Shown here: positions 2,444-64,000 of the stretch, one piece after another | How positions within the stretch are numbered: the stretch's first letter is position 1 | How the letters are laid out: every line of letters starts with the position of its first letter | NCBI RefSeq assembly: GCF_016464385.1 | Contig: NZ_JADMLH010000003.1 | Coordinates: 62,001-126,000, forward strand | Direction: 5' to 3' | Source of the DNA: Nucisporomicrobium flavum | Lineage (GTDB): Bacteria; Actinomycetota; Actinomycetes; Mycobacteriales; Micromonosporaceae | Length of the DNA: 64,000 bases | Program-made: the position numbers and the translations under genes | Notes under the pieces: generated by a model | The model's database searches: none | What the model was told of the DNA's origin: nothing | What the model saw: only the letters and a program-made list of their open reading frames with translations

Positions 2444-2481
2444 TTGACTTTCTACGACGTAGAGCTACTCTGCACTGTAGA
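2444..2481 (+). promoter_or_regulatory. Promoter with TetR-type operator ahead of the MMPL exporter
   Basis: A -35-like TTGACT (2444-2449) and a -10-like TACTCT (2466-2471) stand 16 bp apart. The spacer holds the palindrome TCTACGACGTAGA (2451-2463). A related copy, TCTGCACTGTAGA, lies at 2469-2481. The exact 13-mer recurs at 22078-22090 (ABC exporter) and 56435-56447 (membrane protein/multicopper oxidase). The TetR regulator at 23779-24492 is the obvious candidate ligand; that assignment is inference. Confidence 0.75.
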
Positions 2482-2510
2482 ACACAGACCTACGATGAGG
2501 AGCCCTCAGG

Positions 2511-61885: not shown

Positions 61886-61973
61886 ACGAGCTTTCCTTTA
61901 GCCAAACTCAGCCGCCCCCTGGTCGGATGAGAAACCCAGCGGGCGTGGTGGCTTGAGGAAGAGGGGGCGGCCG

Positions 61974-64000
61974 GTGTTTCGTCGCATCGTGATCGTGAAC
62001 CGTGGCGAGGCCGCGATGCGGCTGATCCACGCGGTCCGGGAGTTGGCCGAGGAGAGCGGCACGCGGATCGAGACCGTCGCCCTCCACACGGATGTCGATC
62101 GCGCCGCCAGCTTCGTGCACCAGGCTGACATCGCCTACGACCTCGGTCCCGCGTCCGCGCGCCCCTATCTCGATCTCAAGATTCTCGAGCGGGCGCTGGT
62201 GGAGACCGAAGCTGACGCTGCGTGGGTCGGATGGGGCTTCGTCGCCGAGGATCCAGCCTTCGCCGACCTTTGCGAGAAGGTCGGGGTCACCTTCGTCGGG
62301 CCGAGCGCGGACGCCATGCGGCAGCTGGGCGACAAGATCGGCGCGAAGCTGATCGCCGAGCAGGTCGGCGTGCCCGTCGCGCCGTGGAGCCGGGGGCCGG
62401 TCGAGACCGCCGAGGCGGCGTTGGCGGTCGCGGACGAGATCGGCTATCCGCTGATGCTCAAGGCGGCCATGGGTGGCGGCGGGCGGGGAATCCGGACGGT
62501 ACGCAGCCGCGACGAGCTGGTCGATGCTTTCGAGCGGACCACCCAGGAGGCGGCGCGGGCCTTCGGCAGCGGCGTCCTGTTCCTGGAGCGCCTGGTGACC
62601 GGGGCCCGGCATGTCGAGGTGCAGGTGATCGCGGACGGCCAGGGCTCGGCGTGGGCGCTCGGGGTCCGCGACTGCTCCGTCCAGCGGCGCAACCAGAAGA
62701 TCATCGAGGAATCGGCATCGCCGGTGCTCAGCGCCGGGTTGGCGGTCGAGCTCAAGGCGGCGGCGGTGCGGCTGGCGATCGCCGTCGACTACCGGGGTGC
62801 GGCCACCGTCGAGTTCCTCTACCACCCGGGTGAACGCACCGTCGCGTTCCTCGAGGTCAACACCCGTCTCCAGGTCGAACACCCGATCACCGAGCTGACC
62901 ACGGGATTCGACCTGGTGAAGGCTCAGTTGCGGGTGGCCGCGGGCGGCCGGCTCGAGGGGGAGCCGCCGGTGGAGCGCGGGCATGCCGTCGAGGCCCGGC
63001 TGAACGCCGAGGATCCCGACCGGGACTTCGCACCGGCCCCCGGCCGTATCGTGCGGCTGGATCGACCGGCGGGCCCGGGCATCCGGGTCGATACCGGTGT
63101 CAGCGAGGGCGACGTCATCCCGTCCGACTTCGACTCCATGATCGCCAAGGTCATCGCGTACGGGCGGGATCGCACCGAGGCGCTGGCCCGGTTGCGCCGG
63201 GCGGTGGCGCAGACCGCCGTGATCATCGAGGGCGGTGCAACGAACAAGGGGTTCCTGCTCGACCTGCTGCATCAGCCGGAGGTGATCGAAGCCAGCGCCG
63301 ACACCGGCTGGATCGATCGGGTGCACGGCGAGGGCGGGCTCCTGTCGCACCGGCACTCGGCCGTCGCGCTGGCCGTCGCGGCCGTCGAGGTGTACGAGGA
63401 GCAGGAGCGGGCCGAGCGGCAGCGGCTGCTGTCCACGGCGTTCGGCGGGCGTCCCCAGGTGCAGCACAAGAGCGGCCGGCCGTTCAGCCTCAAGCTCCGC
63501 GGAGCCGGCTATCGCGTCCGGGCTGCGCGCGTGGGTGCGGACCGGTTCCGGCTGGGCATCGAGGCCGGCTCCGAGACCCACCTCGCGGACGTGGAGCTGG
63601 AGCGCTTCGATCGGCACACCGGCCGGGTCGTCGTCAACGGCTCGTCCTACCGGCTGCTCACCGGCGTCCACGGGCCCGATCATCTGATCGAGGTGGACGG
63701 CGTGACGCATCGCGTCACCCGTGACGAGGGCGGTGTCCTCCGCAGTCCGATGCCGGCCCTGGTAGTCGCTGTTCCGGTCGCGGTAGGCGCCGAGGTGGAG
63801 GCGGGCGCACCGGTGCTGATCCTCGAGAGCATGAAGATGGAGACCGTACTGCGTGCGCCGTTCCGGGCACGGCTGAAGGAATGCCTCGTGGCGGTCGGCC
63901 ACCAGGTCCAGACGGGGGCGCCGTTGCTGCGGCTGGAGCCGCTCGCCGAGGCCGGGGCCGAGAGCACCGCCGCCGGCCCGGTGATCGCCTTGGACCTGCC
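61974..64000 (+). CDS. Biotin-dependent acyl-CoA carboxylase, biotin carboxylase plus BCCP part (cut at right edge)
   Basis: The frame is open from GTG 61974 to the window end (675 codons and two bases). Residues ~1-450 are biotin carboxylase: IVIVNRGEAAMRL, the ATP-grasp glycine loop KAAMGGGGRGI, catalytic FLEVNTRLQVEHPITE. A linker domain follows, then a biotin carrier domain with the biotinylated Lys in ESMKME (~620). After the carrier the frame continues, so a carboxyltransferase may be fused; many such actinobacterial proteins are single-chain. It would provide malonyl-CoA for both PKSs. GTG is preceded by GGAAGAGGGGG. Confidence 0.93.
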   Translation, partial: MFRRIVIVNRGEAAMRLIHAVRELAEESGTRIETVALHTDVDRAASFVHQADIAYDLGPASARPYLDLKILERALVETEADAAWVGWGFVAEDPAFADLCEKVGVTFVGPSADAMRQLGDKIGAKLIAEQVGVPVAPWSRGPVETAEAALAVADEIGYPLMLKAAMGGGGRGIRTVRSRDELVDAFERTTQEAARAFGSGVLFLERLVTGARHVEVQVIADGQGSAWALGVRDCSVQRRNQKIIEESASPVLSAGLAVELKAAAVRLAIAVDYRGAATVEFLYHPGERTVAFLEVNTRLQVEHPITELTTGFDLVKAQLRVAAGGRLEGEPPVERGHAVEARLNAEDPDRDFAPAPGRIVRLDRPAGPGIRVDTGVSEGDVIPSDFDSMIAKVIAYGRDRTEALARLRRAVAQTAVIIEGGATNKGFLLDLLHQPEVIEASADTGWIDRVHGEGGLLSHRHSAVALAVAAVEVYEEQERAERQRLLSTAFGGRPQVQHKSGRPFSLKLRGAGYRVRAARVGADRFRLGIEAGSETHLADVELERFDRHTGRVVVNGSSYRLLTGVHGPDHLIEVDGVTHRVTRDEGGVLRSPMPALVVAVPVAVGAEVEAGAPVLILESMKMETVLRAPFRARLKECLVAVGHQVQTGAPLLRLEPLAEAGAESTAAGPVIALDL

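What the first reader, a model, noticed from the sequence alone, without database searches (positions are those of the whole stretch)
2444..64000. Type II PKS cluster carrying a complete 6-methylsalicylate cassette, trideoxysugar pathway and two halogenases
Seen: KS-alpha/KS-beta/ACP with KR and aromatase; a KS-AT-DH-KR-ACP synthase with two KASIII-like proteins and a discrete ACP; eight deoxysugar genes; two glycosyltransferases; two FADH2 halogenases; a B12 radical SAM enzyme; a Tat multicopper oxidase. Known: polyketomycin and dutomycin pair a type II core with a methylsalicyl-sugar, and chlorothricin has the ChlB acyl cassette. Inference: the product is a chlorinated aromatic polyketide glycoside bearing a (chloro)methylsalicyl ester, and I cannot match the full gene set to a described compound.
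Basis: partly seen in the sequence, partly recalled or inferred. Interest (0 to 1): 0.88.

Follow-up and report, generated by a model that had tools for sequence, protein, structure and literature searches.

The report
Tetracyclic antibiotic cluster with chlorinating acyl cassette
An actinobacterium carries an uncharacterised gene cluster that would likely build a tetracycline-like aromatic molecule, decorate it with rare sugars and cap it with a chlorinated salicylate-type acid; its parts are of known kinds, but I found no described product for this combination, and one of its two acyltransferases has serine where the other has the usual cysteine.

Summary
The core matches the tetracycline/cervimycin/polyketomycin branch. 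The aryl-acid cassette resembles chlorothricin's carrier-protein route, not polyketomycin's CoA route: an iterative PKS (51% to ChlB1), a ChlB3-like Cys-His-Asp KASIII, a discrete ACP and two halogenases, each 72% identical to ChlB4. The second KASIII has Ser in place of Cys; so do 87 of its 89 listed non-self homologues, and it often travels with one subclade of these PKSs. A. harenae holds an orthologous cluster (36 of 50 genes are reciprocal best hits) with one halogenase and no 3-dehydrase match in its genome, so the trideoxysugar step and second halogenase distinguish this one. M. auratinigra holds a sister cluster with what looks like a chloropyrrole cassette. So acyl caps appear to be exchanged on one glycoside core. 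No near-identical cluster was found (no listed non-self match of the aryl-acid PKS above 57%; best KS-alpha 80%, A. harenae). Product, chlorination site and the role of the B12 radical SAM enzyme are inferred. Verdict: a new variant of a known kind.

The parts
2511..4706 (+). MMPL/RND-type exporter (possible left edge of the cluster)
   Evidence: ncbifam, below cut-offs; no partner in six relatives
5533..6870 (+). cation:proton antiporter-like protein (membership uncertain)
   Evidence: reciprocal partner only in M. auratinigra, 44%
6867..8462 (+). FAD aromatic monooxygenase, 62% to A. harenae
8455..9663 (+). FAD oxygenase, 59% to the S. rimosus homologue (OxyL by recall)
9721..9975 (-). type II PKS acyl carrier protein
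10069..11499 (+). halogenase 1, 72% to ChlB4; orthologue in A. harenae 76-77%
11508..12554 (+). Gfo/Idh/MocA reductase (predicted NDP-sugar 3-ketoreductase)
12532..14439 (+). KedN5-family B12 radical SAM C-methyltransferase
14492..16366 (-). acyl-CoA ligase fused to an ABM domain
16363..16815 (-). SnoaL-like protein of the type II core
17006..17815 (+). polyketide ketoreductase
17831..18781 (+). didomain aromatase/cyclase
18774..20417 (+). FAD monooxygenase of the core
20417..21187 (+). SDR ketoreductase of the core
21220..22017 (+). PF04199 cyclase, 74% to the S. rimosus homologue (OxyN by recall)
22099..23782 (+). ABC-2 transporter pair
23779..24492 (+). TetR regulator
24549..25631 (+). methyltransferase (BchU-like), 60% to A. 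harenae
25645..26406 (+). SDR ketoreductase
26456..27802 (+). halogenase 2, 72% to ChlB4, 69% to halogenase 1; no reciprocal partner in A. harenae
27827..28558 (+). small methyltransferase, no partner in six relatives
28501..29541 (-). NAD epimerase/reductase, no reciprocal partner in six relatives
29716..30927 (+). glycosyltransferase 1
   Evidence: below the family cut-off
30937..31527 (+). RmlC-type epimerase
   Evidence: below the family cut-off
31677..32438 (-). LuxR-type response regulator
33353..34660 (-). glycosyltransferase 2
   Evidence: below the family cut-off
34685..35983 (-). RfbH-type NDP-hexose 3-dehydrase (3-deoxygenation)
   Evidence: 671.6 bits vs cut-off 423; no match at E <= 1e-100 in the A. 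harenae genome
35997..36929 (-). SDR (predicted 4-ketoreductase)
36926..38335 (-). NDP-hexose 2,3-dehydratase
   Evidence: PF03559
38528..39787 (+). KS-alpha
39797..41014 (+). KS-beta (chain length factor)
41091..42134 (-). methyltransferase, 58-59% to A. harenae
42157..43302 (-). HsaA-like flavin monooxygenase, 62% to A. harenae, no partner in the other five relatives
43299..44360 (-). methyltransferase shared with A. harenae, A. formosensis, BK340 and HmicA12
44498..46093 (+). FAD monooxygenase (RdmE-like, below cut-off)
46107..47045 (-). SARP regulator
47206..48204 (+). ChlB3-like KASIII acyltransferase, Cys-His-Asp
48201..53417 (+). iterative KS-AT-DH-KR-ACP synthase (predicted 6-MSA synthase)
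53407..54438 (+). Ser-type KASIII acyltransferase, Ser-His-Asp
54475..54750 (+). discrete ACP of the aryl-acid cassette (ChlB2-like role predicted)
54923..55906 (+). RmlB dTDP-glucose 4,6-dehydratase
55970..56485 (-). Polyketide_cyc2-domain protein, no partner in six relatives
56926..58482 (+). multicopper oxidase with Tat-like N-terminus
58637..59827 (+). MetK, SAM synthetase
59824..60837 (+). PfkB kinase (adenosine-kinase-like by recall)
60880..61821 (-). RmlA thymidylyltransferase
61974..64000 (+). biotin carboxylase end of a fused 1819-aa carboxylase running to about 67.4 kb (possible right edge)

Best explanation
This is a type II polyketide gene cluster that likely makes a tetracycline-like glycoside with 2,3,6-trideoxysugars, predicted to be capped by a chlorinated methylsalicylate-type acid that would be handed on by carrier protein as in chlorothricin. 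Shown by sequence: the minimal PKS and the cyclase/oxygenase set of the tetracycline/cervimycin/polyketomycin branch; genes for a 2,3,6-trideoxysugar; an iterative aryl PKS without a thioesterase domain, a Cys-type ChlB3-like KASIII, a discrete ACP, a Ser-type KASIII and two ChlB4-type halogenases. Inferred steps: the iterative PKS makes 6-methylsalicylyl-ACP; the Cys KASIII moves it to the discrete ACP; one or both halogenases chlorinate it, on the ACP or after attachment; the Ser KASIII passes it to a sugar hydroxyl on the glycoside. The B12 enzyme is predicted to add a methyl to an unactivated carbon of the aglycone, an O-methyl group or a sugar, and MetK would help supply SAM.
For: Core: the S. 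rimosus locus (oxytetracycline by organism and recall) shares six core genes at 44-74%. A. harenae, A. formosensis, BK340, HmicA12, M. auratinigra and G454 share 36, 25, 27, 21, 30 and 17 of 50 genes as reciprocal best hits. Cassette: the best solved relative of both halogenases is ChlB4, 72% each; of the first KASIII, ChlB3, with the residues of Cys113-His296-Asp301 kept. In relatives these halogenases usually sit by small carrier proteins: 10 of the 11 caught by my pattern, of 15 in the stretches fetched. The cassette keeps the order KASIII-PKS-Ser KASIII-ACP in A. harenae. Sugar: RfbH-type dehydrase 671.6 bits, 2,3-dehydratase. ChlB route from print: PMC9573744 passages.
Against: The PKS is outside the subclade of ChlB1 and PokM1, so another aryl acid is possible; no naphthoate-synthase reference was at hand. 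No ChlB6 sequence was seen, so the Ser KASIII cannot be equated with it. In G734 and G628 its relatives sit beside such a PKS with no gene similar to the window's glycosyltransferases in the 60 kb annotated, so its acceptor need not be a sugar. Among 42 genomes with related type II loci none has a KASIII closer than 43% to the Ser type, so this pairing with a type II core is rare. Both glycosyltransferases match the activator-dependent type (below cut-off) and I recognised no activator gene. G454 pairs the B12 enzyme with a type II core and no such PKS in the stretch seen.
Confidence: 0.72

Rival explanations
1. The cluster is an ordinary polyketomycin/dutomycin-type cluster: free 6-MSA is activated as CoA thioester, C-methylated and put on the sugar, and the halogenases act on the aglycone.
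For: Same core and trideoxysugar genes as A. formosensis, which has an MSA-type PKS and one KASIII in its cluster and no halogenase of this type at E <= 1e-60 in its genome.
Against: The only ligase I found in the window is the core ligase, shared by clusters in which no MSA-type PKS was seen; discrete ACP, two KASIII and ChlB4-type halogenases are features of the ChlB route.
Confidence: 0.12
2. The Ser-type KASIII is a DpsC-like priming enzyme and the aryl acid is the starter unit of the type II PKS rather than a cap.
For: Its best solved relative is DpsC, which also has Ser (the name DpsC and its priming role are recalled, the Ser is in PMC9573744 passages).
Against: In G734 and G628 its relatives sit beside such a PKS with only a single FabF-like KS (37-38% to KS-alpha) and no KS-alpha/KS-beta pair in the stretches read; the core follows clusters that I recall as primed by small units.
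Confidence: 0.06
3. The iterative PKS makes a different aryl acid (for example orsellinic or a naphthoic acid), and the cap is not methylsalicylate.
For: PKS subclade separate from ChlB1/PokM1; KedN5 is named after kedarcidin, which carries a naphthoate (recalled).
Against: KR and DH motifs intact; sources name many of the close relatives 6-methylsalicylic acid synthase, though such names are not tests.
Confidence: 0.1

Closest known systems
Chlorothricin acyl cassette (ChlB1-ChlB6)
   Same: Iterative PKS without thioesterase, discrete ACP, Cys-His-Asp KASIII, ChlB4-type halogenase (72%)
   Different: Attached to a type II core, not a spirotetronate; PKS in another subclade (51%); second KASIII is Ser type (ChlB6 not seen); two halogenases
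Polyketomycin/dutomycin clusters
   Same: Tetracyclic type II core, MSA-type PKS (PokM1 51%), deoxysugars
   Different: Carrier-protein parts instead of an MSA ligase; halogenases and B12 enzyme added. The pok cluster itself was not read here, only PokM1 and passages of papers
Actinomadura harenae cluster (G123:C189, product unknown)
   Same: 36 of 50 genes reciprocal best hits; same cassette order, KedN5 type, HsaA type, halogenase next to type II ACP
   Different: One halogenase in the cluster; no 3-dehydrase match at E <= 1e-100 in its genome; no match to the multicopper oxidase, MetK or kinase in the stretch
Micromonospora auratinigra cluster (G255:C1:2242-2312 kb, product unknown)
   Same: 30 of 50 reciprocal best hits; trideoxysugar genes, ChlB3-like KASIII, ChlB4/PltA-type halogenase
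   Different: Ligase, dehydrogenase and carrier as in chloropyrrole cassettes; no MSA-type PKS in the stretch
Oxytetracycline and cervimycin clusters
   Same: Core ligase, SnoaL-like protein, KR, aromatase, cyclase and oxygenase (S. rimosus locus; HmicA12, cervimycin-like by inference, lacks a KR partner in the stretch)
   Different: No amide-starter genes recognised; aryl cassette and halogenases added

Membership tests
Polyketomycin/dutomycin-type cluster | Tetracyclic type II core genes | tested here: met
   against related loci, not the pok cluster itself
Polyketomycin/dutomycin-type cluster | Iterative MSA-type PKS | tested here: met
   PokM1 51%; different subclade
Polyketomycin/dutomycin-type cluster | Separate MSA ligase feeding a C-methyltransferase on MSA-CoA | tested here: not met
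   only one AMP-binding ligase among the window genes scanned; PokM3 and PokMT1 from PMC7247197 passages. Methyltransferase substrates are not testable here
Polyketomycin/dutomycin-type cluster | Sugar 3-C-methyltransferase for axenose (recalled) | tested here: inconclusive
   none recognised, but no dedicated reference was compared
Chlorothricin-type acyl cassette | Cys-His-Asp KASIII of ChlB3 type | tested here: met
Chlorothricin-type acyl cassette | Discrete ACP | tested here: met
Chlorothricin-type acyl cassette | ChlB4-type halogenase | tested here: met
   72% identity, GGGPAG and WxWxIP motifs, two copies
Chlorothricin-type acyl cassette | Second KASIII of ChlB6 type | tested here: inconclusive
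   second KASIII present, Ser type; no ChlB6 sequence was found
Chlorothricin-type acyl cassette | ChlB5 O-methyltransferase | not tested
   several candidate methyltransferases; no ChlB5 sequence held
KedN5-family B12 radical SAM methyltransferase | Score above the family cut-off and CxxxCxxC | tested here: met
   977.6 vs 700 bits; CPYKCSFC
Chloropyrrole acyl cassette | Prolyl ligase and prolyl-carrier dehydrogenase | tested here: not met
   against such genes of relatives (identified by context and recall) the HsaA-like protein matches at best 25% (E 1e-7) and the ligase 26-32%
2,3,6-trideoxysugar pathway | 2,3-dehydratase plus RfbH-type 3-dehydrase plus RmlA/RmlB | tested here: met

The most novel reading that the evidence does not exclude
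The two halogenases divide the labour: the ancestral one, 93 bp from the type II ACP here and beside it in A. harenae, chlorinates the growing aromatic polyketide on its ACP, and the second one chlorinates the salicylate cap on its own ACP, while a Ser-His-Asp KASIII family not yet recognised as such hands the aryl group over through an acyl-serine intermediate. The product would be a glycoside chlorinated at both ends.
Probability: 0.12. Interest if true: 0.72.

Novelty: new variant of a known kind. Interest (0 to 1): 0.5.

Why it matters
It suggests that one tetracyclic glycoside core is combined with different acyl caps: an MSA type with halogenases here and in A. harenae, an MSA type without them in A. 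formosensis, a probable chloropyrrole type in M. auratinigra. That would be a natural guide for exchanging caps on tetracycline-like antibiotics. It also points to a conserved Ser-type KASIII family (87 of 89 listed homologues), often found with one PKS subclade, whose reaction can be tested in vitro, and to two diverged ChlB4-type halogenases in one cluster, which would allow a direct comparison of their site selectivity.

Tried and rejected
The scan missed A. harenae (KS-alpha 80%), which came through the B12 enzyme, so misses are possible. MIBiG was not available.

Finding a described product: paper searches (listings) and passages of an Amycolatopsis review, an Actinomadura review and a phocoenamicin paper gave none. 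Only open-licence papers are held, and no paper was read whole.

Amycolatopsis as the host was an early guess and was dropped: exact protein identity ties a same-family genome to Micromonospora auratinigra (the name is cut in the list), so the family is Micromonosporaceae. Actinoplanes is a guess from genome sizes.

Recent duplication of the halogenases was rejected: 69% to each other, less than each to ChlB4; the seven-sequence tree puts them apart with support of 72-86 only.

A chloropyrrole cassette in the window was rejected. Structure prediction was not run, as solved relatives exist.
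Full report
What is there. The window is G000:C23:62001-126000 of a 9.02-Mb genome in 50 contigs. Gene calling gave 52 genes. Annotation used NCBIfam and Pfam. KS-alpha keeps SAGCT and KS-beta shows VAEQAG. The iterative PKS has intact KS, AT (GHSVG, AFHS), DH (HxxxGxxxxP), KR and ACP motifs, and the Pfam scan shows no thioesterase. The cluster runs from about 2.5 kb to about 67.4 kb, if the transporter on the left and the fused carboxylase on the right belong to it; both edges are uncertain.

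Core. Comparing all window proteins with these 80 loci shows the S. rimosus locus sharing the cyclase (74%), KR (66%), oxygenase (59%), aromatase (52%), SnoaL-like protein (52%) and ligase (44%). Assigning these to Oxy proteins is recall. Longer stretches of six relatives gave reciprocal best hits for 36 (A. harenae), 25 (A. formosensis), 27 (Streptomyces sp. BK340), 21 (Streptomyces sp. HmicA12), 30 (M. auratinigra) and 17 (G454) of the 50 window genes g03-g52. The A. formosensis contig ends inside its cluster, so its count is a minimum. A. harenae (KS-alpha 80%) was not among the 80 loci; it came through the B12 enzyme and was named by exact protein match. That cervimycin is related to polyketomycin and dutomycin is from passages of PMC11237698. 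Calling HmicA12 cervimycin-like is inference from its genes.

Aryl-acid cassette. Order: Cys KASIII, PKS, Ser KASIII, ACP (47.2-54.75 kb). The first KASIII has ChlB3 as best solved match (304.6 bits) and keeps the residues aligned with Cys113, His296 and Asp301 of ChlB3 (residues from PMC9573744 passages). The second KASIII has the daunorubicin enzyme (DpsC by recall), ChlB3 and CerJ as best solved matches and has Ser114-His292-Asp297. Of the 89 non-self homologues listed, 87 have Ser and 2 Cys at this site. Such close relatives are not common beside type II cores: in 42 genomes holding related KS-alpha loci the nearest KASIII is 43%, in 67 same-genus genomes 44%, and 4 of 295 genomes of the Streptomyces group have a match at E <= 1e-85, 47-52% (7 candidates scored per genome).

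PKS subclade. Among 115 iterative PKS sequences in a tree (110 of the 120 listed, chosen by length, plus five from loci), the window's PKS lies in a clade of 19 (support 1.0). Ten of these 19, the window included, share their contig, judged by equal longest-contig length, with a Ser-type KASIII; 7 of the other 96 do, two of them by the loci read. I matched the contig lengths by hand and the list is capped, so the counts are lower bounds. ChlB1 and PokM1 lie outside even the 40-member clade around the window (midpoint root, deeper nodes weakly supported). PokM1 is my reading of P0047, the PKS of Streptomyces sp. Tue6028, since strain Tu6028 makes polyketomycin (PMC5318452, abstract and passages).

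Halogenases. Each is 72% identical to ChlB4 and 69% to the other; the A. harenae enzyme is 76% to the first, 72% to the second. In a seven-sequence tree the second groups with enzymes of W. vitaminophila, S. albiflavescens and S. montanisoli (support 86). In 354 genomes of the same family, 17 including the window's own have a match at E <= 1e-150 (at most 4 candidates scored per genome). Of the 22 matches outside the window I read stretches around 15. A pattern picked 11 of these 15, and 10 of the 11 have a carrier-like gene of 70-110 aa within two genes. The one miss has a 94-aa gene next to it that the pattern did not accept. Of the four matches that escaped the pattern, three have a gene of 88-92 aa next to them; the fourth, G281, has none nearby, and the PKS beside it is in pieces. 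So this halogenase type usually goes with a carrier protein. In the window the first halogenase starts 93 bp from the type II ACP gene, and the two are neighbours in A. harenae too. PMC9573744 places ChlB4 chlorination after the acid is attached (passage), so the timing is open.

Sugar. RmlA, RmlB, 2,3-dehydratase, Gfo/Idh reductase, RfbH-type 3-dehydrase, an RmlC-type epimerase and two SDRs are what a 2,3,6-trideoxyhexose of amicetose or rhodinose type needs (pathway knowledge). A search of six relatives found the 3-dehydrase at E <= 1e-100 in 4 of 6; A. harenae and G243 have no match. So the A. harenae cluster is not a full match, and the sugars of the two products should differ.

B12 enzyme. 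It scores 977.6 bits against the KedN5 model. Nearest homologues with a named source: Micromonospora sp. NPDC 79%, Nocardiopsis 70%, A. harenae 67%. In G454 a 67% homologue lies in a type II trideoxysugar cluster without the PKS cassette in the 62 kb read, and that genome is not among the 17 with a ChlB4-type halogenase. This speaks for a substrate in the aglycone or sugar rather than the aryl acid. The contig of G454 ends nearby, so this is not firm. In G243 a homologue lies next to metK (81% to the window's MetK) and what looks like methionyl-tRNA synthetase (by eye). No paper in the library holds the word KedN5.

Cap exchange. M. auratinigra (G255, named by exact match of P0217) has a type II trideoxysugar cluster with a ChlB3-like KASIII (53%), a halogenase (64%) and a carrier (52%), but with a ligase and dehydrogenase and no aryl PKS in the stretch. 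Their reading as prolyl ligase and prolyl dehydrogenase is from size, context and recall. The window's HsaA-like protein and ligase are not close to these. Together with A. formosensis (MSA-type PKS at 45-46%, no ChlB4-type halogenase at E <= 1e-60 in its genome) this suggests that one glycoside core takes different acyl caps.

How it most likely works. Steps shown: gene content, catalytic residues, relatives. Steps inferred: 6-MSA as product of the PKS; transfer to the discrete ACP; chlorination; transfer to a sugar; C-methylation by the B12 enzyme; any role of the multicopper oxidase. Polyketomycin makes and methylates MSA-CoA (PMC7247197 passages), and I found no second ligase in the window, so I favour the chlorothricin-like ACP route.

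Known or new. Every part belongs to a known family or is a relative of one; the combination was not found. The highest listed non-self identities are 57% (PKS, partial cover; 56% over 98%), 79% (B12 enzyme) and 67% (Ser KASIII). The statement that no described product matches rests on the searches listed in Tried and rejected. On checking the calls I mended several statements (carrier-protein counts, the KS-alpha maximum, the G734/G628 description); none moved the odds.

Noticed in passing
G734:C1 (L190-L192) and G628:C1 (L195-L197): An iterative PKS of the MSA type stands next to a Ser-type KASIII (49-51% to the window's) with a multicopper oxidase (36-38% to the window's) within about 10 kb and no relative of the window's glycosyltransferases in view; the acceptor of the aryl group is unknown.
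   Followed up: partly
L229 (G281:C1:4001-24000): A ChlB4-type halogenase (71%) next to an iterative PKS and KASIII genes that are broken into several open frames; apparently a decaying salicylate-type cassette.
   Followed up: no
L219 (G424:C2), 10412-11425: A ChlB3-like KASIII in a chlorothricin-like cassette with Ser for Cys and Gln for His, next to a copy with the usual residues; possibly an inactive or repurposed duplicate.
   Followed up: no
L177 (G243:C157), 15.1-20.0 kb: metK, a KedN5-type B12 enzyme and what looks like methionyl-tRNA synthetase lie in a row, on a 27-kb contig where no other gene matched the window.
   Followed up: no
L233, L231, L234, L235 (G255, Micromonospora auratinigra, about 2242-2312 kb): A type II trideoxysugar cluster with eight genes similar to the window's glycosyltransferases and a probable chloropyrrole cassette, product unknown to me.
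   Followed up: partly
window 28501-29541 (-): A sugar epimerase/reductase with a CPLCG zinc-finger-like insert that has no reciprocal partner in any of six related clusters.
   Followed up: no
window 14492-16366 (-): Acyl-CoA ligase fused to an antibiotic-biosynthesis-monooxygenase domain; in A. harenae the two are separate genes, in M. auratinigra a full-length match (637 aa) suggests the fusion.
   Followed up: partly
G000:C47:336679-337683: Another KASIII of this kind, 36% identical to the Ser type, elsewhere in the same genome, between type I PKS hits.
   Followed up: no
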